Origin: Mesocentrotus franciscanus
Lineage: Eukaryota > Echinodermata > Echinoidea > Camarodonta > Strongylocentrotidae
Length of the DNA: 64,000 nucleotides
Assembly: GCA_037976565.1 (NCBI GenBank)
Contig: CP137668.1
Location: 4,174,261 to 4,238,260 of the forward strand
Direction of reading: 5' to 3'
Position 1 is the stretch's first letter, and the number at the start of each line of letters is the position of its first letter. Below, piece by piece: positions 29,572 to 54,715 of the stretch. Made by a program: the position numbers and the translations under genes. Under the pieces are notes generated by a model. That model was not told the DNA's origin, made no database searches, and saw only the letters and a program-made list of their open reading frames with translations.

Positions 29572-30087
29572 ATCAAGGGCGTCATTGCAATCCGAGTTTG
29601 AGCATGGGGGGACACAATTACATGTCACTCTCTCTCTAGTTACGCTGTTTCACGGCATGTACTTTCATTGGTGACCGGTTCATTTATTGTCTTTTTCATC
29701 TTTGACGTTTCATTACATTTTTAGAGAAAGAAGACGATTGGTTGTACGGTTCTCGACTCTTAATCTTTGTCTGAATTCAGTTTCCCACCTCCCGCGCGAA
29801 GCGCGTAAGTTTTGACGTTTCATAATTATTAGAGAAAGAAGACGATTCGTTGTACCGTTCTCGACTCTTAATCCCTGTTTCATTAAATTTTTAGAGAAAG
29901 AAGACGTTTCATAGTACCGTTCTCGACTGTTTGAATAAAGTTCCCCCGCGAAGTCAACAGAGAGAGAAAGAGAGAAAGAAAGAAAAAGGAAAGATTTTAA
30001 CCCCAAATCGTGGGGGACATTTCACCACCTGAAAATTCGTGGGGACGTGTCCCCGTGCCCCCAGGATAATGGATTGACGCCCCTGAT
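29572..30087. mobile_element. TIR element nested in Helitron A
   Basis: The ends are inverted repeats, ATCAAGGGCGTCATTGCAAT at the left and GGATTGACGCCCCTGAT at the right. The segment is missing from the matching place in Helitron B. Inside (29709-29935) a unit containing TTTTAGAGAAAGAAGACG and GTACCGTTCTCGACT is repeated three times. It resembles non-autonomous DNA transposons with CAGGGGCGTC-type ends, but the superfamily is not certain. Confidence 0.65.
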
Positions 30088-30358
30088 AGGCCTACGAATA
30101 TTGTTCTCAGCATGCACTTCACTCCCATTATCATTTTGGTTTTTTCACACATTGCTAAGTTAATTTAGTCCTACAATGAAAATAATATACAAATATACAA
30201 TGACACTCGAAGGATAATGGATTGACGCCCTGATAGGCCTACGAATATTGTTCTCATGCACTTCACTCCCATTATCATTTTGGTTATTTTCACACATTAC
30301 TAAGTTAATTTAGTCCTACAATGAAAATAATATACAAATATACAAATATACAATGACA
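30063..30358. repeat. 148-bp tandem duplication at the edge of the nested element
   Basis: The segment starting AGGATAATGGATTGACGCCC at 30063 recurs at 30211 with small differences and continues through the same Helitron sequence (CCTACGAATATTGTTCTC and onward). The second copy includes the last bases of the nested TIR element, so the duplication happened after that insertion. Confidence 0.85.
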
Positions 30359-31859
30359 CTCGAAGTGACTCGAGGATCTAGCTAAAACTATTCGCATCGA
30401 AGGAACATCAAATCGTATTATATTATCCCGAGGGCCATCGATCGCGGCCCCAGAGAGAACAGTACTGTTCCCGAGTGCGAATAGTTTTAGCTTGTTCCGA
30501 GAATGAGTCATTGTATAATTGTTTTATATCCCTTCCACCTGTAGGCCTATCATTCCTTGGACACTTCTGTAATAGCATGTACCGTACTCACATTCACATC
30601 ACATTCAATAAAGAAATAAAAGAAAACAACAATTCATTGCACGGCTCAAACACGAAACATTGAAGAATCTAAAGACACGCTATACAGCCAGTATTACAGG
30701 TACAGCAGTAGAGTGCTGCAGTTACCGCACAGGGTACAGTAAATTGCATGGCGTGAGCGCCGTGACTGGCACCGCGGGAGTTGCCCGTGCGGAGGCATTA
30801 CGTGAGCTCGCTGAATTTACCTTCTCGTCAGTTATATGGTCTCGATAATTACAATCTATTTGCGTTATTGTTGTTGTGATTTTAATGTAGTTTTCATGAA
30901 AAGACCAATAAAGCAGAAGCTTGGACTATGATTATGTTGACGTGGTTCACAGAATATGTATAAATATTTTCAAAGTAAAGATTTTACGCGAAAAATCGGA
31001 CGGTTTGTGCCAATATATCGCAGCTGTCGCACGAATTAACTCAACTGTGTGTGTGTGTGGCCTGTGCGTAGAACCAACATAATACGTTCTCGATCGTCAG
31101 TTTGGCATGGCTGCTGCAAAGGCTTATATATAGCAAGATGCCTAACACCAGTCAGGCCCAACCCGTTGCGCCTTGTACTTGCTACGCCACATGACTTGGG
31201 TGGATTGTCGTATGCTGTGTATTTCTCTGGCATGCCCGTAAAGTGCCTACAAAGCATATCATAAGCAAGATGCCTAACACGGGTAGGCCCGCTCTGTTTC
31301 AGCGTGTATCTGCTACAACACATTATAGAGTGGATCGTCTCTTAAAAGTGTATCTCCTTGATTAGACAGAGGGCGGGTGCACGCCTTGCTGCCTCACTCG
31401 CGGGTTCGTCGCCTTCTTCCACGGACAACGCCGGCCGTGCTCTCGTCCGCCCGTCCTCCCGGGACCCCGAAACCACCTTTAACGACATCGACGGCGACCG
31501 CGGGGTCGACGTGGCACGCGGGATACGGGAGACATGCCTCGTATAATTGTGTCGCCGTTCCCGCGCCTCGGCGAAGGGGGGCGCGGTCGAGGAAAGACGT
31601 TTTTCATGAACCGTTTTTACCCCCCGCGACGATTTTGCGTATTAATATATAGATTACTCCTGAAGATCATGTATCATTACATCACACCTACTTTTTTAAA
31701 AAACAACACCATAGCTCCTAACCACAAAAAGCGATACAATCCTTGAATCCTAGCTAATCTCTCATTATAGGTGGTTTTGGCTTTGAAGCAAGCTCTTGGT
31801 CAGTCTCACAGATAAGTGTGTTCGGATTAGGATGATCCAGCCCTAGGCTAGTGGGTCCA

Positions 31860-44278: not shown

Positions 44279-44351
44279 TCAATTCTTCTTGGGAAGACAT
44301 GATTTCATGGAAATCCTCAGGTCCGAACTCTGCGTTACTCCTACCAATAAT
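44279..44351 (-). CDS. TMEM163: TMEM163 coding exon 8 (C-terminal tail, stop codon)
   Basis: The last exon completes Lys265 and encodes LLVGVTQSSDLRISMKSCLP and then KKN before TGA at 44279-44281. The frame is fixed by the two bases left over from exon 7, and the KLL junction matches human KLLID. The cytosolic tail is about the same length as in human and ends in a basic KKN. The acceptor is CTCTCTTGATAG. Confidence 0.85.
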
Positions 44352-47300
44352 CTATCAAGAGAGTGATATAAAGCATAGACGGTGAAAATGACAAAATTCC
44401 ACACACTCTACAATCAAATTGAATACCAAAATTGTAAAAGCTAGAAGTAAACTGCTATGTAAGTTGAAGTCACATTGCTACAAAAATAGGTATGCTTAAT
44501 CTAATTGTTGAATGAAGCTAATAGTAGCTTGACTAAAGCCGGCCAAAGACAGGGTAATAATATGATTGCAGGGCCCTCAGGGAGAACAATATTAATACTG
44601 ATGAGGCTACCCTGGGTAAACAAGAAATATTATTATTATCATTGTTATTAATGGAAATTCTATTCGGTCTGGTAAATGAGAACATAATAAAATGTTTATA
44701 AACTCCGTTTTAGCCTTCCTGTTTAATATGATAAAAGCTTTGGTTATTATAAAAAGCTATGAAAGCAGATGAACATTCAAGGAATTCCTTTCTACCAGTA
44801 TTAACCATCTAACAAATGGGTGGAGAGTGGCAAATGTGGATTAATGTCCTGCCACAGGACAGTAGTGCCATGAAGAGGCTCGACCCACAACCTTTGCCTC
44901 TTCAGCAAGAGTTTTAACCACTTGACTCTGACATCTCTACATGTACTTGGCATTCATATGTGAAGAGCCCTACACTTACTTGATTCCATAGACAGTAAGT
45001 AGAAGTCCAACGATGATAGCGACAATCTCATCCAGGTACCAGACATGGAAATCATAATGGATGACTGTGGTGCAAATGAGCATACTGAGTGCTGTGATCG
45101 CCCCAGCCAAGGAACTGTAACCTAAAAGAAAGAGAAGATATAAAGTGTAGGTATATTAATTTGATGAATAATGTGATGAAGTACGCAATGGTAATAAGAA
45201 TTACCAATTACTTGCACCGAGAGGAAAAAAAATTGGGGGATGAAGGTAACTGGTTGTTTTGCTATCTCTAAATATCCATAATTGTTCCATCAGTCTACAT
45301 AAATAAACAGGCAAAAGAAAAAAATTCATAAGATGATAATCATACAAATAGCCTTCTATAGTATCAACCTTCACAATGCATTAATTGCTGTTTTGCATTT
45401 CAGACAGAATACGTAACTCCACATCAGCACACCATATGTAGTGCGCTTATTTGAAATATTCAGGAGAGTTGCCATAAGGGTTCTGAATGATTACTTCTAG
45501 CATGTGCTTGTCCTGTACTTCTTGTTGTGTACAAATATCTTCATTGTATAACCCATGAAATGTAATAACCTCAAGTAGATATTAGAAGGTACTAAAGCAA
45601 CTGCTTCAACTTCAGTTACAATTTAAGGGACCAACCAGTAATAATTTATGTATTCAAATTCTTTCCAATAAAATGAAATGATAGCCATCAGACTTTGACA
45701 TTAAAAAAATTTAAAAAATGAAACTACAATTTTACAAATATTCTGGTTGTTACATACCATCTGACTGAACACTTGTGCTGTCTAATTTCTTGGCAATGAT
45801 GAACTTGAGAATGGCTAATGTTGAACATACAAACAAACTCACTCCTGCAAGAATCATTAGCCAGAAACCCTGTAGGAAAAAATTAAACGATCCACTTTGA
45901 AATGTAACAAATGAATGTTATTATCATGATGTTCTTTGAAAAACTAACATAAAATTGCATTGCTACTCCAAAAAGACCCTATGGCTCCTCGGAGCTTAAA
46001 GTCATATTGAGCACATGCAGAAAATCATAGAAAAGTTAAAGGGAAAGTTTGAAAGTTTCAAATATCCCTACACAAATTTCTGACTCTATGATTTTCTTTA
46101 GAAGCACCCATCCATTAACTTTTCATAGAATTTTGTTAAATATATTTAAATTCTTGAATTATGAAAGAGTATGGATGTTTGATATTTGTTGCCAATGATA
46201 TATTTTAGGCATCCTTTTGAAAAGTATACATTAAAATATCTAGCTATACTTTTATTTGTTTGGTTTGATACTACTTCCAATATTAACAAATAATGACAGA
46301 AGAAAATACATAAATAACAATCAATGACAGAAGAATACATAAATATTAATCAAAGACGAGGACTGGCAAAATTGGAAATAACAATAAACTAGATGGAACT
46401 TCAACTGCGCGCAGTCGAAAATGATGCCTCCGCCATAGAGCAATTTTACAAACCAAAATGGAAGCAATTTTTAAAATTCAAGTTTGATTGTAATCCATCT
46501 GTTGGTTCTAATGATAATGCGATCACAAGCTATTTTGAGATACATAATGAGCCCTGTGACCTTTGACCTCGTGACCCCCAAATCTAATCAGTTCATTGAC
46601 TCTGCAAGATACATACATGACCCAAGTTTGGCGGTAATCCATCAATCGGTTCTTGAGATAACGTGATCACAAGCTATTTTGCATACATAATGAGCCCTGT
46701 GACCTTAGACCTTTGACCTCGTGACCCCAAAATCTAATCAGTTCATTGACTCTGCAAGATACATACATGGCCCAAGTTTGGCGGTAATCCATCAATCGGT
46801 TCTTGAGATAAAGTGATCACGAGCTATTTTTGCATACATAATGAGTCCTGTGACCTTTGACCTTGTGACCCCAAAATCTAATCAGTTCATTAGCTCTGCA
46901 AGATACATACATGACCCAAGTTTGGCGGTAATCCATCAATCAGTTCTTGAGATAACGCGATCACGAACTATTTTTGCATACATAATGGGCCCTGTGACCT
47001 TTGACCTTGGACCCCGTGACCCCAAAATCTAATCACTTCATTAGCTCTGCAAGATACATACATGACCTGAGTTTGGCGGTAATCCATCAATTGGTTCTTG
47101 AGATAACGCGATCACGAGAACGGGACGTACGCACGGACGGACGGACAACCAGAAAACATAATGGAGGCATAAAAATATGGCTTGGAACTTTAACAGCTGG
47201 TGTGATATGGAATGAATATGAATAGATCAATACTCACACTAACAGTCTCGGTGTTGGCTATCAGATCTGGAATGGCTCGGGCAAATATAGATACCGCTGC

Positions 47301-50300
47301 GATGATGAAGAGAGACCCCAGGAACAGGAGAGATCTGCATGCAAAATGATAAATACATTTCCTTTTCTAAAACTGATGTCAAATAAATGAAGAAATTCAT
47401 CTTGAAGCTGGTTTAAAGTAGACATTCCAAGAAAATCACAAAAAATGTATCAGTAGAAACCAGAGAGCTTACAGATGACAATTAAAATGAATGATAACTA
47501 GCAGGACCCGTGGAAAATCCACGGGATTCTAGGGGGTTGGGCTGGTTGTAATTATGTGCTATCGATGTTTTTTTTTATTTTATTTTAATTCTCTTCTGTG
47601 TATAGACCTAATTTTTATTCTTTTTCTACTCTTTTTATTAATATTAAATTCGATAGAATATCAACATTTGTATCATAACTTATAATAAAACTTGAAGATT
47701 AGAAGAAAACAGTGAAATTAGTAATTTGTAAATAAATTGATGCAAATATTTTACACTTTAACTTTCGTTTTCACTTAATTTCGTTAATTATGATTATTGT
47801 TTTTCATTCTTTCCTATCCTTATTCTCACTATCCCTTTCCCGTCCTCATGCACTCTCGTTTCTTACGAATACTGATCTCATTTTAATCCCATTCTCATTT
47901 TTGCTATGTTCACACATCTCTAAGTTAATTTAGTTCTACACTGGAAATAATATTAATTGATGCATTCATATATTTTCCAATTGAAATAAACATTGGGTAT
48001 TCTTGAAAAATAAATTTGTTTGCAAGAGAGTTACCTAAGGTGTAATAAGCACTTGTTTTTCTTTTTTGTCTTTATCAAAGTATAATTTAAGTATTTATTG
48101 ATCGAGGGGAAAAAAACAATTTTGTTAATTCATATATCATATATTTGTTAGAGTTAAATCAATTTAAACACAGGAAGTTCGTCAGTTAAAAATTATTTTC
48201 AATTATTTGGAATATGTTAAAGTTTCCTGAGTTGATTCGGTCTTGATCGATGTCGTCGCGAGCCTTGGTGCTGTTCTGGCTAAATCTATGAAATTAGAAA
48301 AATGTTGATTCCACACACAGTCTGTCGAGTACCGGAAGTGCCCGGGAGCACTGCACGAACATACTGGCACAATTAAACTGTTCAAATTTTGTATGAAATG
48401 TTTGCTGTGAAAGAAATATACAAATTGTGTGAACCATGTAAAGATAATCATAATCCAAGCTGCTACTTAAGATTGTGATTCATTAGTACTGAGATCAAAA
48501 TAATATTGACAGAGTCTGTAGAGTGTATACTAATCTGTATGCGCTGTTTGGCCAACACTTGAAATGTGCCAGTTTATAAGGTATTTGCTCTACTATAATA
48601 TGCCACGTTTTATTTTTATATTCAAGACTCCAGTAAAAGTTTTTATCTAATTCATCTTCTCTTTATGCACCCATGTTACACATTTATTTTTTCGTTTTCC
48701 TTTTTGAAGACACCATAGCCCGATTTCTATTGCTTACCGGCTAACTTCGCCCGAATCATTGGTCGCCAAAAGTAGCCCAATATGAAATGGCGCACCGTAA
48801 ACAAACTGTATATGATCTCGATAATTGAGATCTATTTGCGTTATTATTGTTGTGATTTCAATGTAGATTTCATGAAAAGACCAATAAAGCAGAAGCTTGG
48901 ATTATGATTATGTTGGCATGGATCACAGAATTTGTATAATTATTTTCAAAGTAAAGATTTTACCGGTACGAAAATAGGTCCATGGTTTGCGCCCGTGTGT
49001 AGCAATCAACTCCACTCGAATCGAATGTGTGCATGTGTGATGTGAGCGCGCGTAGAATCATCGCATAATACACGTACACGCATGGCCGCATGGCCTACAA
49101 AGCATATCATATAGCAAGATGCCTAACACGGCAAGGCCAACCTGTTGCAGCATACATATGCTACAACACATTACGTGGGTAGATTAGCGTCTGCCGTGTA
49201 ATCTCTTTGATTGCACAGAGGGCGGGTGCACGCCTCGCTGCCTCACGCTTGCGGGTTCGTCGCCTCCTTGCACGGACAACGCCGGCCGTACCCTCGTCCG
49301 CCCGTCCTCCCCGGGACTCCAAAACCACGTTTAACGACATGGACGGCGACCACGGGGTCGACGTGGCACGCGGTATACAGGAGACATGCCTCGTGGAATT
49401 GTGTCGCTGCGTTCGCCACGGCAAAGGCGGGTGCGGTCAAGGAAAAGTGTTTTTCATAAACCGTTTTGTACCCCCCGCGACGATTTTGCGTATTAATATA
49501 TAGATTGTTACTTTGAACGTTTCTAAGCGGAGAAGTTTGTTAACCTTGTTCAATCTAACCTTCCCTTATGCAATAATACAAATTAAATCAATATTTAGAA
49601 TCAATGAATGTCTACTTTAATGAGAGCAGAAAATTAAGCAAAATCCCATTTGGATAGAAAATTAGAGGTATGTACATGTATTTCAAATTTGTAATTGATC
49701 AAATTAAAATAATTGTAAATCTATATGAGTTACTATGCAAGCACCTCCCTGTTTATGGAGGAATAGATCTATTTCATACAGCAAGTGAGGTGAACAACAT
49801 GTGTCCATTACTATATCCACTGCAAATGTTCTTTAGAAAATAATAGAATTTATGAAAATGTCAGTAAAAAAACAAATGGGTAGCTGCTCACAAGGGAATC
49901 ACAAATGTGAGCCTTCAAACTTGTTTGCCTTTAAATTACATTTTCATCAAACTTTCATCAATATGTTTCTCCATTTTTAACAAAGAAAATTTGATGCCAG
50001 GATAGAATTATCCTTTAGAAAGTAAAAAACTAAAAACACTCCCTCCCCACGACAAAAGTTACCTTGAAAATAGCCAATGATGAACAACCAATCATGTTTT
50101 ATTGAGAGATCAACTCAAATATTATATCAAATAAAAACATAAAACATGAAATAAATAGGAGATATGAAATTTTTATCATAGTACAGTGAAACCTGTCTAT
50201 AAAGACCACCCAGGGAGACAAGAAAAGTGGTCTTTATAGGCGGGTGGTCTTTATGTACAGGTTCCTTTAGTACATGTTTCAATGAGAAACCATTTTCAAG

Positions 50301-53300
50301 GGAAACAAAAAATGTGGTCTTTGTAGACAGGTGGTCACTAAAGCAGGTTTGACTGTACTCCAATACCTATTTATGGACAACATGTCACATTTTAATCCTT
50401 GTCAAGGCCATCAGGTTATAAAATATACCATTTCATAAGATCATAATTCTCAAAATAAAAATAAGTACGTCTTTCAAGGATTATAAAAGCCAATTCTACC
50501 TCTCAGCTTACACTTTCGATCCCATGACTTTCATTCCATCATTAAACCAAATTATGCTGGTAGGGACAACCGGTCATTACATTAATACAAATGAAAAGGA
50601 CACTACCAGTAAGAAATCAAGTTCAACAAAGAACGGGTACACAGACCCTTGTGTAAGCATGGACCTACTACGATTGGTGTAAGTCACTTTGACAAGAGAG
50701 CACAACTTTCAGAGTGCTGGTACTCGAGTACACGGTTAGTTTCTAAGAACAATAATAATAATAATGATGGCTTCTTATATAGTGCACATGTCTGTCACGT
50801 TGTGACCCTCCTGGCACTCCCCGTAATGACTTGGAAACAATAAAACTTTTAGGGTAGATTTCTAATTTCGAATTCATTCTGGTACAGCAAAATTTGTTCA
50901 TGTTGCTGTAAAGAAATCATCAACTAAATTACCACTAAGACATATATTTAATATTCACATGTCATGGAGAAATACATAACTATACTTTTAGCATCATAAC
51001 ATAACATTACATAAACCATACATGAAAGCAAATTGAGATTTGGGGTTTTGGTATCTTATATCTCCAATATCTACTGGTCTATCCTTATCTTAGCTCAAGC
51101 AACTGAGCAGAAAGCTATCAAGCTATTTTCAGAAGCTTTCTGTAAAATGACATAACATCTAAATGAGATATCTGTGGTAGATGTGAGCTTCAATTTGTAC
51201 CTAGTGAATGAAGAACTGGTTGCATCTGTATGATAATATACCGGTAACCATTTATTCAGGGTGCAACTTTGTTGGGGTGGAGGGCTGACACTTCCAACGA
51301 CTTTTGCCAGCTAGAATATCAACATTCCAATTCTATATTTTGCAAGCAAGCAAAGCAAGCAGACGCAATATTTTTTACATGAAATGTAAGGTCATCATCT
51401 ACCTTCCTATTTCATGATAAACATTTTAAAACGGACATAAGCAACTTCTGAAATACAAATCCATAAGAAGAACTCATGATGAACTTTTACCAGAAGAAAA
51501 TAAGTATTACAAAAAATTTTTAAAAAGAGGTAAGAGGTACTTACATTCTTTCTTTCTTTTCTGAACGAACTGAGCCGAGGGAACCCATGAATCTCCATAT
51601 AACTACTACTGAGGTTCCTACATCCAGCAAACAGTCAAACTGTGAAAAGAGTAATTATACAAGTTATATAAGAGATATATGAAAGATTATTATCATCAAC
51701 ATCATCATCATCTTTTCTGAATGAACTGAGCCGAGGGAACCCATGAATCTCCAGATAAATACTGCTGAAGTTCCTACATCTGGCAAACAGTCGAACTGTG
51801 AAAAGATCAATTAAACCGTACAACTGATAAATATTAGGCCTCATGTGAGACAGAAGTCACAGAACTATCAGCAGTAGCAGTAGAAGTAGCATTGTTATGT
51901 GCATCACTATCATTAGCTTCCAAATCATCATCACCATCATCATCACCAGCATCATCATCATCACCACCACCAACCACGACCATTCTCCTCATCATCATCA
52001 TCATTGATATCACCAACATTATCATAACCATTACTCCTTACATTAGGATGCAAGAAGTGAATATCACTTGTTTTTATAATAACACAAAAACTGTTTTTAT
52101 TTTTATTTACAAGATACCATTAGAGCTCTATACCAGTTCAAAATATTTGATGGGATTTCCATTTGTTAACCACTACTGCAAACAAATACATGTAGTATGT
52201 GGATGTATATTACTTGCTTAGCTTGTATACTTACACCAAATCCAAATGCTGCTGAGCTGTTGGTTGTATTTGCTACAACTGTTGATAAAACAAATAAAAG
52301 AGTGAAGTGATATTTCAAAAGCATTTCCATTTCAAAATCTTATTACTACTTTCACAATGCATTGTCTAAAATCAATAAAAAGATGGTTAAAAGCATTACA
52401 TGATGCTCACATTCTCATTTGATACTTAACAAAATACATTGTGTCTTGAATCTAGCCTAAATCATCTTCTCAACGAATAAAATGTTTAACTTTTAAGAAT
52501 CCAATTTATCCAAATCTATATACTAAAAAAAGTATATCTAATCTGAAAGGAAAAAAAATCCTAACAGAATAGGCGTAAATATTCACTCCTGAATGATAAA
52601 CGCCTATAAACCTAAACAACAACAACAACAACAAGGGGAACAAGAAAAGTACAGGGCCTTTTATCAGGATGCATGTATTGATGCTAGTCTTTAGCCTGGA
52701 TAGTGCAGACCCTGTTAAATGTGTCATGAAAAAATGTGTCTTAACCTGTTGACTACTGCATTGTCAAAGTCCCATAGGCTTAATACAGGGACCACCCGGT
52801 TCCCGTAGGCAACAGGTTAAAGGTAATACAAAGTTTTGGCATGGGGTCATGAACTTGGTTCAAATGAACATATTGGAAGCATATTCGATTTTACAATATT
52901 CAATGATCGTTGTCGCGGTTGAAATTGAGTCTAAAGTGATGAAATTGTAAAAAATAAACTCTTTATGTTGTATAGCTCCCTCTCAAGACTGATATTACTT
53001 TAGCTTTAAAACAATGTTTCTTGACTACAATCGACCAATTTGCTATTCCCGTTTGGAAATAATATATCAGAACTGCATATTCTGAGATTTTCATGGTCGC
53101 AGCTACCATGGAATGGCCTTAGGCGCTATTTGAAATATTTGAAATTTACCGGTAGCACCGGTAAATTTTGATTATTCAATTTCTCGAAAGCAGAAGTGTT
53201 TTAGGGGCTAAATTTTCTAGTGCTTATAATACATCCACAGGGGCATCCAAATATATAAACAAAAAAATTAAGAATTACTATCCATCCAATTTTCAAAATT

Positions 53301-53557
53301 TCCCAAAACTTTGCATTACCTTTAAAATTTAGTCTGGATGACTGAGGTTGTCGAATGTTGGAACTTACCGAAGCTGAGAATACCGATTATGAGAAGACCA
53401 ACAACGGACGCCCAAGAAACGGCCAAAGCTGCAGAGCGCCATCTAGAGGTCTCTTCCATGGACAAGGGTTCTCTGCCTTGCTCCAGTAGATCTGAAGAAT
53501 GAAATGATTTGGAGAGAAAAAGAATTACAGGAAGAAAATTTGAGTCAAGTGTTGTTG

Positions 53558-53588
<31 letters not shown>

Positions 53589-54715
53589 CACACACACACA
53601 TACACACACAAACACACACACATAGAGGTAGAGAGAGTGAGGTAGAGAGAGTGAGAGAGAGAGAGAGAGAGAGAGACACACACACACACAGGTAGAGAGA
53701 GAGGGGGAGGGAGAGATGATTGGAGAGAGATGGGATATGGAGGGAGAGAGAAAAAGAAAGATATTCCTATTATAAAAGTAATGGTATTCTGACTCTTTTA
53801 TATCAAAATTTTGTATTATAATTTACTTACTCATCTGTCTGAAATTTTCATCAGTATAACAAATATCATATAACAGTATAATAACACCTAACACTATAAT
53901 AAACTGAAATAGACATTACAATATATACTAAATATCAAAAACATATTTGAAAATAAGTGATAGGAGTATAATGTACCCTTGCAGAAAAGGTAAAGAGTTA
54001 TTTTTTGTGCATTTTCAATTGAGAGCAAAGGGGTACTGTTCATTAATCAATTATTCTGTTCTGACAGAGACTTGTATTGACACAAATCCTTGATTGCTTA
54101 CAGGCTTTGTGTATTTACTCAATCTAAGTATTCACATGATTTCAACCCAGATGTACAATATGACCTCTGGGCTGTTGGTATGCTGAAAAATAAACAATGA
54201 ATCACAGTGATCATTGAGTACGCTCAGCATATACTGTATACCCTCAATATTCTCACAATACATTTGTAATTTAGAATTAGGCACAAAGGGATTAGCATAA
54301 ATTTAATATTACATCTGGATCTGCAGAATATACGCTTAAATACATTATGGTAAATGTATGATGCAAGTTGCTAATAATTTTTTTTGCAAAATAAATTAAA
54401 TTTTATTAGTGGAATACCTAAAACAATGATTTTTTGTTGTTTAATTGGCGGGAAGGATGGGGGGTGCTTCATCAATGATATGATGGCTGATTACTCAGAG
54501 CTACCTCGATCTTAGGATACTTGTTTGAACTTACTTTCATTCATTGTAGTCTTCTTTCCACCCTGGTCCCTTGGTCCTTCTCCATCCTCCTGTCTCTCTC
54601 CTTCCCATTCACATGCTGTGTAATTCTGTCCAGAATACTTGGAATTAAAGGGCATGTGCTCAAGATGCAATGCCTCGACTGGTAAGGTCCTCTTCTCAAC
54701 CTCATTGTTGTTCAT
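44279..54715 (-). CDS. TMEM163: TMEM163-like zinc-binding transmembrane protein, 8 coding exons, 288 aa
   Basis: Joining the exons at 54535-54715, 53369-53491, 52235-52278, 51545-51639, 47238-47334, 45758-45869, 44980-45121 and 44279-44351 on the minus strand gives an unbroken 288-residue protein, against about 289 in human. It aligns from the first helix to the C-terminus with TMEM163, for example VWYLD near residue 244 and VYGIKLL near 261. TMEM163 proteins are six-helix members of the cation diffusion facilitator superfamily that bind and export zinc in vesicles and at the plasma membrane. Here the helices fall near residues 78-102, 113-133, 149-168, 182-205, 218-238 and 245-266. Asp118 and Asp122 form the DxxxD metal site. 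Two N-glycosylation sequons (N105, N108) sit in the first loop. Intron phases are 1,1,0,2,0,1,2, and every junction is GT-AG. The polar first 60 residues are less conserved than the membrane core. The identification rests on remembered family sequence. Confidence 0.93.
44571..44640 (+). mobile_element. SINE 3' tail fragment in TMEM163 intron 7
   Basis: GCAGGGCCCTCAGGGAGAAC followed by ATATTAAT and GAGGCTACC matches the tail of the SINE at 39869-40090, with an ATT-rich end. Confidence 0.6.
44820..44945 (-). mobile_element. tRNA-related repeat fragment in TMEM163 intron 7
   Basis: On the minus strand a box-A-like GTCAAGTGGTTAAA and a B-box-like GGTTGTGGGTCGAGCC are followed by a body with GGCAGGACATTAATCCACATT. 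The same body occurs on the plus-strand side at 2406-2475. Confidence 0.55.
44980..45121 (-). CDS. TMEM163: TMEM163 coding exon 7 (fifth and sixth helices)
   Basis: This 142-nt exon encodes residues 218-264: helix 5 (YSSLAGAITALSMLICTTVI), a short loop (HYDFHVWYLDE) and most of helix 6 (IVAIIVGLLLTVYGI). VWYLD is identical to the human loop motif, and the helix 6 ending (VYGIK) is close to human (AYGVK). This is the most diagnostic exon for the family assignment. It has a strong acceptor (CTCTTTCTTTTAG) and donor GTAAGT. Confidence 0.94.
45758..45869 (-). CDS. TMEM163: TMEM163 coding exon 6 (fourth helix)
   Basis: This 112-nt exon encodes residues 181-217, GFWLMILAGVSLFVCSTLAI followed by LKFIIAKKLDSTSVQSD. 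The LAILKF core and the cytosolic turn match the human LAVLKF turn before helix 5. Asp217 sits at the start of helix 5 in the position of the human TDG motif. It enters in phase 0 and leaves in phase 1, with acceptor TTTCCTACAG and donor GTATGT. Confidence 0.92.
46424..47170. repeat. Intronic element with four ~145-bp tandem units and inverted ends
   Basis: Units begin near 46553, 46696, 46847 and 46991, spaced 143, 151 and 144 bp. Each holds TGACCTTTGACCT-like text, AATCTAATCA, GCAAGATACATACATG and GGCGGTAATCCATCAAT. The block ends in ACGGACGGACGGACAACC. The ends ATGCCTCC (46424) and GGAGGCAT (47170) are inverted. It lies in TMEM163 intron 5 and stops about 60 bp from the exon 5 donor. Similar repeats are common in genomes of marine animals and fish, from memory. 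Confidence 0.8.
46557..47007. promoter_or_regulatory. Four DR1-type nuclear receptor half-site pairs in the intron 5 repeat
   Basis: On the minus strand AGGTCAAAGGTCA, a perfect direct repeat with one-base spacing, occurs at 46557-46569, 46851-46863 and 46995-47007, and with one mismatch at 46707-46719. DR1 is the binding site class of RXR, HNF4, COUP-TF and PPAR. Function here is inference; the sites come with the repeat. Confidence 0.4.
47238..47334 (-). CDS. TMEM163: TMEM163 coding exon 5 (third helix)
   Basis: This 97-nt exon completes codon 148 and encodes residues 149-180, SLLFLGSLFIIAAVSIFARA then IPDLIANTETVS. It aligns with the human helix 3 region. The acceptor is TGCATGCAG and the donor GTGAGT; it exits in phase 0. 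The donor side is only about 60 bp from the end of the tandem-repeat element at 46424-47170. Confidence 0.92.
47498..49504 (-). mobile_element. Non-autonomous Helitron B (2007 bp) in TMEM163 intron 4
   Basis: It has the same termini as copy A: 5' TCTATATATTAATACGC at 49504 and 3' hairpin plus CTAG at 47498-47501, with A and T flanks. The 3' hairpin region, a block containing AATAAAGCAGAAGCTTGGA (48878-48902) and the GC-rich 5' block (49200-49490) align with copy A, but the nested insertion is absent, so B approximates the uninterrupted structure. It lies in the same orientation as the host gene. No long coding frame is present. Confidence 0.85.
50184..50355. mobile_element. Tc1/mariner-type MITE (172 bp) in TMEM163 intron 4
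   Basis: The element starts CAGTGAAACCTGTCTATAAA and ends in its inverse (GCAGGTTTGACTG), bounded by TA on both sides. Two inverted GTGGTCTTTATAG motifs form an internal hairpin. A second copy, in opposite orientation, is at 56021-56154. TA duplications and CAGTS-type ends point to the Tc1/mariner superfamily. Confidence 0.8.
51545..51639 (-). CDS. TMEM163: TMEM163 coding exon 4 (metal-binding DxxxD helix)
   Basis: This 95-nt exon encodes residues 117-147 plus two bases of codon 148: FDCLLDVGTSVVVIWRF and the cytosolic turn that follows. Asp118 and Asp122 correspond to the zinc-ligand pair (FDAILDV) of human TMEM163. The acceptor is TTTTCACAG and the donor is GTAAGT. A near-identical extra copy lies 156 bp upstream at 51712-51795. 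This copy is taken as the functional exon because it has both splice sites and its phase fits exons 3 and 5. Confidence 0.92.
51712..51795 (-). pseudogene. Tandem duplicate of TMEM163 exon 4 with lost splice donor
   Basis: Over 84 nt this segment differs from exon 4 at 8 positions. It keeps the reading frame, the DxxxD pair, the WRFMGSLGSV turn and the TTTTCACAG acceptor. The sequence where the donor should be has become a GAT/ATG trinucleotide run, with no GTAAG-like site, and the frame stops shortly after. About four changes alter residues, including Leu to Pro inside the metal-site helix (FDCLPDV). It may be a decaying exon or, less likely, an alternative exon using a cryptic GT in the repeat. 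It lies in intron 3. Confidence 0.85.
52235..52278 (-). CDS. TMEM163: TMEM163 coding exon 3 (44 nt, loop 1 and start of helix 2)
   Basis: This small exon encodes VANTTNSSAAFGFG (residues 103-116) and enters in phase 1 and leaves in phase 0. It matches the human SASAFGFAFDA region, where the loop meets helix 2. Two adjacent N-x-T/S sequons suggest glycosylation of the extracytoplasmic loop. The acceptor follows a long T-rich tract and the donor is GTAAGT. Confidence 0.9.
52565..52635 (-). repeat. Dispersed repeat with GTT tail, copy 2
   Basis: AGGCGTAAATATTCACTCCT and GAATGATAAACGCCTATAAA followed by (AAC)n are the inverse of the copy at 41250-41340. It lies in TMEM163 intron 2. Confidence 0.65.
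53369..53491 (-). CDS. TMEM163: TMEM163 coding exon 2 (first transmembrane helix)
   Basis: This 123-nt exon encodes residues 61-101: a short linker (LLEQGREPLS) and then most of helix 1 (ALAVSWASVVGLLIIGILSF). It aligns with the human stretch containing ALWVSWFSIIV. The acceptor has a pyrimidine tract ending TTCTTCAG and the donor is GTAAGT; phase is 1 on both sides. A GA/CA microsatellite lies in the intron just upstream. Confidence 0.92.
53562..53708 (+). repeat. Compound GA / CA microsatellite in TMEM163 intron 1
   Basis: Two GA blocks alternate with ACAC blocks (53588-53620 and 53675-53690). Confidence 0.95.
54535..54715 (-). CDS. TMEM163: TMEM163 coding exon 1 (start codon, cytoplasmic N-terminus)
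   Basis: This exon encodes residues 1-60, starting with MNNNEVEKR and ending TTMNE, and closes in phase 1 before a GTAAGT donor at 54529-54534. An in-frame TGA lies 30 nt upstream of the ATG, so this is the first possible start in the exon. The segment is hydrophilic, rich in E, G, K and Q, with no signal peptide, as expected for the cytosolic tail of TMEM163, which is poorly conserved between phyla. The exon probably continues upstream as 5' UTR to an acceptor at 54765. Confidence 0.85.

What the first reader, a model, noticed from the sequence alone, without database searches (positions are those of the whole stretch)
51545..51795. Tandem duplicate of the TMEM163 metal-binding exon, donor overrun by a GAT repeat
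Exon 4 carries the zinc-ligand DxxxD pair. A second copy 156 bp upstream is about 90% identical over 84 nt, keeps the acceptor and the two aspartates, and changes Leu to Pro between them. Its donor is replaced by a trinucleotide run. Either this is an exon caught in the act of decaying, or a mutually exclusive exon giving a variant metal site through a cryptic GT. Partial recognition of the intact acceptor could also disturb splicing of the real exon.
Basis: partly seen in the sequence, partly recalled or inferred. Interest (0 to 1): 0.8.

Follow-up and report, generated by a model that had tools for sequence, protein, structure and literature searches.

The report
Broken partial copy of TMEM163 exon
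In a sea urchin zinc-transporter gene, most of one exon has been copied into the intron just before it, but the copy lacks a usable splice exit and carries damaging changes, so it is most likely a dead fragment and ordinary.

Summary
On the minus strand lies an intact eight-exon TMEM163a-like gene of an echinoid. Exon 4 (copy B, 51639-51545) has a second copy, A, 156 nt upstream: 106 nt at 90%, acceptor and both Asp kept, Leu to Pro between them.

The interpretation needs correcting. Homology stops 10 nt before the exon's end, and what follows A shows no similarity to intron 4 after B (163 of 200 shuffles score as high). So the donor was most likely never copied, rather than overrun. The GAT run probably belongs to a GAT-rich patch of intron 3: all three pure runs of 12 nt or more in the window lie at 51700-52003.

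The GT at A's donor position is very weak (71% of minus-strand GTs score as high or higher). A changes two residues invariant in the 13 orthologues that hold the exon. A plus B frameshifts; acceptor A to donor B gives a 251-nt exon with an in-frame stop. A variant zinc-site exon is unlikely; a leaky, decay-targeted isoform is possible. RNA data were not available. Local duplications are common here (10 clusters in 200 kb).

The parts
51545..51639 (-). Exon 4, copy B: the working exon (95 nt, phase 0 in, phase 2 out), FDCLLDVGTSVVVIWRFMGSLGSVRSEKKER + AT, donor AAT|GTAAGT at 51544
   Evidence: orthologues
51711..51795 (-). Copy A: exon-4 homologous part, 85 nt, FDCLPDVGTSAVFIWRFMGSLGSVHSEK; ends 10 nt before the exon end
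51796..51816 (-). Intronic part of copy A: 21 nt with intact acceptor CTTTTCACAG
51640..51660 (-). Corresponding 21 nt with acceptor of exon 4 copy B
51661..51710 (-). 50-nt spacer between the copies: GAT run then AT-rich DNA; no similarity to intron 4 after B
   Evidence: spacer plus acceptor B, 163 of 200 shuffles at least as high; anchored extension 0
51700..51711 (-). GAT run at the end of copy A; with GT at 51700 (GAT|GTTGAT, score -7.15)
51924..52004 (-). GAT-rich patch of intron 3, holding the other two pure GAT runs of at least 12 nt in the window (51950-51961, 51989-52003)
51664..51666 (-). In-frame TAA met if acceptor A is used and read through towards donor B (119 nt before that junction)
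54535..54715 (-). TMEM163 exon 1 (from ATG), donor AAA|GTAAGT
53369..53491 (-). TMEM163 exon 2
52235..52278 (-). TMEM163 exon 3, ends ...AAFGFG, phase 0
47238..47334 (-). TMEM163 exon 5
45758..45869 (-). TMEM163 exon 6
44980..45121 (-). TMEM163 exon 7
44279..44351 (-). TMEM163 exon 8 with stop

Best explanation
Copy A is a truncated local duplicate of the 3' end of intron 3 plus the first 85 nt of exon 4 of an echinoid TMEM163a-like gene. Shown: the block is 106 nt and ends inside the exon, so it holds an acceptor but no donor. Inferred: it arose as a small local duplication joining exon 4 to intron-3 DNA next to a GAT-rich patch, and has since drifted as intron sequence. Without a donor it is not defined as an exon, and copy B is spliced as exon 4. 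If acceptor A is ever used, the exon should run on to donor B (251 nt) and meet a TAA after 43 codons, a transcript expected to be degraded.
For: 106-nt block at 90%. DNA after A has no similarity to intron 4 after B (163 of 200 shuffles score as high with strict, 188 of 200 with loose scoring; anchored extension 0). The GT at the donor register scores -7.15; 71% of the window's 3721 minus-strand GTs score as high or higher, and the donors of exons 1-7 score 1.7 to 4.9. L5P and V13F hit residues invariant in 12 of 12 matched orthologues and in P0012 read by eye. Copy B gives an intact 288-aa protein; A+B frameshifts; acceptor A to donor B has a stop. Local duplications of this size are common: 10 clusters in 20 x 10 kb, 4 in the window.
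Against: The acceptor has stayed intact (17 of the last 20 intron nt identical), and the GT falls exactly at the old donor register, so swapping A for B keeps the frame over all 288 residues. dN/dS between copies is 0.28 (4 synonymous, 4 non-synonymous differences), which is compatible with mild constraint as well as with a neutral A. Seven of eight exon differences lie in its first 42 nt, unexplained. The 5' edge of the copied block and the origin of the 50-nt spacer are not settled.
Confidence: 0.86

Rival explanations
1. Copy A was once a complete tandem exon whose donor was later destroyed in place by growth of a GAT microsatellite.
For: A GAT run sits where the donor would be, and a GT is in exact register with the old donor.
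Against: Beyond the GAT run the DNA still shows no similarity to intron 4, although the exon is 90% identical. Pure GAT runs of 12 nt or more are rare (4 in 200 kb sampled) yet three lie within 304 nt here, so the run is more simply old intron-3 DNA.
Confidence: 0.08
2. The acceptor of copy A is used at a low or regulated level, giving a 251-nt exon 4 with a premature stop that lowers TMEM163 output (a poison isoform). This does not exclude the best explanation of how copy A arose, so its odds overlap with it.
For: Intact acceptor; stop 119 nt before the junction; 251 nt is within the usual range of exon sizes (recalled).
Against: No RNA evidence on hand; nothing shows that the acceptor is kept by selection.
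Confidence: 0.08
3. Copy A is a mutually exclusive exon giving a zinc site with FDCLPD.
For: Exact phase match: 95 nt, in-frame substitution for B gives a 288-aa protein, and A plus B frameshifts.
Against: Very weak GT. Pro and Phe at positions invariant in the 13 orthologues with the exon. KER becomes MMM, written by the GAT run. No such isoform among the 14 cluster representatives found; members behind them were not seen.
Confidence: 0.02
4. Assembly artefact: two haplotypes of one exon placed side by side.
For: Sea urchins are highly heterozygous (recalled).
Against: Homology ends abruptly on both sides, so two haplotypes of the whole locus are not what is seen; a haplotype duplication would carry the donor. 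The assembly has 21 contigs, the 20 whose length was seen being 29.7 to 62.3 Mb. Raw reads were not available.
Confidence: 0.03

Closest known systems
Tandem exon duplications with mutually exclusive splicing (PMC9013439; human set in PMC9741552; passages of both seen)
   Same: Two homologous copies of one exon side by side in one gene; an asymmetric phase (0 in, 2 out) means that only one could be used.
   Different: Copy A lacks a good donor and carries changes at invariant residues; no sign of use.
Partial exon duplication / pseudo-exon (recalled as a general class)
   Same: An acceptor and most of an exon without a donor, within an intron.
   Different: Nothing beyond its particular position over the zinc-ligand helix.
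TMEM163 (cation diffusion facilitator, PF01545), DXXXD in the second transmembrane helix (PMC7926707, one passage seen)
   Same: Copy B is the exon with this motif in a complete orthologous gene.
   Different: Copy A encodes the motif with Pro before the second Asp, which none of the 13 orthologues with the exon shows.

Membership tests
TMEM163 (Cation_efflux, PF01545) | Sequence similarity to TMEM163 and the Cation_efflux profile over the protein | tested here: met
   PF01545 E 5.3e-10; 89% identity to a Lytechinus pictus TMEM163a-like protein
TMEM163 (Cation_efflux, PF01545) | DxxxD in the second transmembrane helix | tested here: met
   FDCLLD in copy B, matching orthologues; motif described in PMC7926707. 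That the stretch is the second helix is taken from that paper, not predicted here
Functional mutually exclusive exon pair | Homologous neighbouring exons with compatible phases | tested here: met
   90% over 106 nt; swap keeps the frame
Functional mutually exclusive exon pair | Usable acceptor and donor on each copy | tested here: not met
   Acceptor intact; GT of copy A scores -7.15, with 71% of minus-strand GTs in the window as high or higher (textbook matrix recalled; consensus score only, use not tested)
Functional mutually exclusive exon pair | Both copies under protein-level constraint | tested here: inconclusive
   dN/dS 0.28 with 8 differences; neutral-A and mildly constrained models both fit; L5P and V13F at invariant sites
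Functional mutually exclusive exon pair | One and only one copy in each transcript | not testable with these tools
   No RNA-seq data
Partial exon duplication / pseudo-exon | Copied block ends inside the exon and lacks a splice site | tested here: met

The most novel reading that the evidence does not exclude
The intact acceptor of copy A is used in some cells as a switch: acceptor A to donor B yields a decay-targeted transcript that tunes TMEM163. Less likely, a weak donor at 51700 gives a variant transporter with Pro beside the zinc ligand.
Probability: 0.05. Interest if true: 0.45.

Novelty: new member of a known kind. Interest (0 to 1): 0.14.

Why it matters
It is a clear, small example of how exon duplications can fail at birth: the copied piece stops short of the donor. 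It also warns that a gene finder or homology search may call copy A an exon (tblastn finds it at 78% identity over 32 residues). If the acceptor were used, it would show how a stray duplication puts a brake on a zinc transporter.

Tried and rejected
A clean 156-nt tandem duplication was considered and not upheld: anchored similarity upstream of the two acceptors ends after 21 nt, and downstream it is zero. A unit reaching back to the intron-3 GAT patch was tested: the best match is the GAT stretch itself (20 of 22). No shuffle of 200 reaches it with strict scoring, 13 of 200 with loose scoring, and 1 of 200 with loose scoring once the last 20 nt are removed from both. Such shuffles do not keep triplet repeats, so these figures flatter the match. 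For the spacer without its GAT run (51690-51660) nothing remains (133 of 200 shuffles as high). So that origin is favoured mainly by the rarity of GAT runs. The dN/dS test has too few differences to decide. No tRNA was found in the window by a bacterial-code scan, and no Rfam family at its gathering score. The species was not proven: the best hits are echinoids. An Echinus-type urchin with 21 chromosomes is a recalled guess that no call confirmed. [quoted passage not shown] 'partial exon duplication' with 'splice site' gave one unrelated paper (listing only).

Full report
What is there. The window is part of a 773-Mb, 21-contig genome (G000:C3). On the minus strand it holds an eight-exon gene, 54715 to 44279, whose joined exons read as an intact 288-residue protein. 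A draft of exons 2-7 finds TMEM163a-like proteins of echinoderms, best Lytechinus pictus at 89% identity, and matches Pfam Cation_efflux. So the host is an echinoid; the exact species was not established. Genome searches with the local DNA (1 match) and with the draft protein (7 matches reported) showed no second locus.

The duplicate. Copy B (51639-51545) is exon 4: acceptor TTTTCACAG, 95 nt, donor AAT|GTAAGT. It fits the frame of exons 3 and 5 and keeps the residues that are invariant among orthologues at the sites where A and B differ. Copy A lies 156 nt upstream. The homologous block is 106 nt at 90%: 21 nt of intron end plus the first 85 nt of the exon. Within those 85 nt there are 8 differences. 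They change Leu to Pro (exon residue 5), Val to Ala (11), Val to Phe (13) and Arg to His (25), and four are silent.

Was the donor overrun? The DNA that follows A's last homologous base was compared with intron 4 after B: no similarity (163 of 200 shuffles at least as high with strict scoring, 188 of 200 with loose), and an extension anchored at the end of the homologous block scores zero. With exons 90% alike, intron 4 should still be recognisable if it had been copied. The simplest reading is that the copied block ended inside the exon. Pure GAT runs of 12 nt or more are rare (4 in 20 stretches of 10 kb picked by hand across the genome), yet all three in the window lie between 51700 and 52003. 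The run at the end of A is therefore probably part of a GAT-rich patch of intron 3, not a new expansion. Whether the duplication started in that patch is not settled: outside the GAT stretch and the last 21 nt, the spacer does not match the DNA upstream of A (133 of 200 shuffles as high).

Could A be spliced? With a textbook donor matrix (recalled), the GT at A's donor register, GAT|GTTGAT, scores -7.15; 71% of the 3721 GTs on this strand score as high or higher. The donors of exons 1-7 score 1.7 to 4.9. A as a substitute for B would keep the frame, because the GT happens to stand in register. A and B together would frameshift. Acceptor A to donor B gives a 251-nt exon with TAA after 43 codons. 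That last form is the most realistic way for A to affect the gene, and its transcript would be expected to be degraded.

Is A constrained? Of the 14 cluster representatives found (the second search scored only the 7999 candidates sharing most words, and members behind each cluster were not seen), P0009 lacks the exon, and P0012 was missed by the pattern because it reads YGFG; P0012 was read by eye. In the other 12, Leu5 is invariant (12 of 12) and Val13 is invariant (12 of 12); copy A has Pro and Phe there. Positions 11 (Val, Ala or Ile) and 25 (Tyr in 10, Arg 1, His 1) vary. P0012 also has Leu5 and Val13. A Nei-Gojobori count gives dS 0.235, dN 0.065, ratio 0.28. In simulation, a neutral A with a constrained B gives 4 or fewer non-synonymous differences of 8 in 33.5% of runs. 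Two copies under mild constraint (0.2) give 4 or more in 34%, and under stronger constraint (0.1) in 9%. A neutral A would still lack a stop in 76% of runs, so the open frame of A says little. The ratio does not decide; the residues hit speak for loss of constraint. Seven of the eight exon differences lie in the first 42 nt, which is unexplained.

Base rate. By one rule (at least 60 nt, 80%, within 1 kb) there are 10 clusters of local duplication in the 200 kb sampled, in 7 of 20 stretches, one of them a long satellite-like array, and 4 clusters in the window including this one. One of those 4 (46479-47118) is the internal repeat of a dispersed element. At such a rate some should fall on exon edges (inference).

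Known context. Tandem exon duplications are well described. A 2002 survey cited in PMC9013439 (passages seen) reported them in about 10% of animal genes, while annotated substitution pairs are few, 236 in human and 154 in Drosophila melanogaster (PMC9741552, passages seen). PMC9013439 also reports that at least some unannotated duplicated exons may be expressed in a tissue-specific way, which keeps the novel reading open. The DXXXD aspartates of the second helix are reported as critical for zinc binding (PMC7926707, one passage seen). In the listings seen (15 of 117, 15 of 34, 1 of 1) no title or abstract start dealt with this exon; the unlisted papers were not seen.

Verdict. A real but ordinary feature: a truncated local copy of exon 4 without a good donor, most likely dead. 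A regulatory effect through its intact acceptor is possible and testable with RNA reads.

Noticed in passing
window 46383-47163 (intron 5 of the gene): A dispersed repeat element with internal tandem units of about 144-150 bp. The genome has 2076 first-look candidates; the 40 that were scored are all 99-100% identical over 291-292 nt, and the copies looked at (L030-L033) seem to differ in number of internal units. This suggests a recently active, abundant element.
   Followed up: partly
window 30063-30365 and 29701-29931: Short tandem duplications (148-bp and 60-170-bp spacing, 87-91% identical).
   Followed up: no
P0006 (Patiria miniata TMEM163-like): The first Asp of DxxxD is Gly in this predicted protein (FGCVLD), while the other 12 orthologues with the exon keep it.
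   Followed up: no
window 51777 and 51621: A GT at the same place in both copies (GAT|GTAGGA) is the best-scoring GT (-0.15) of the region apart from the true donor (3.35).
   Followed up: no
L010 1-4868: A long array with spacing of about 288 bp in a hand-picked control stretch of the genome.
   Followed up: no
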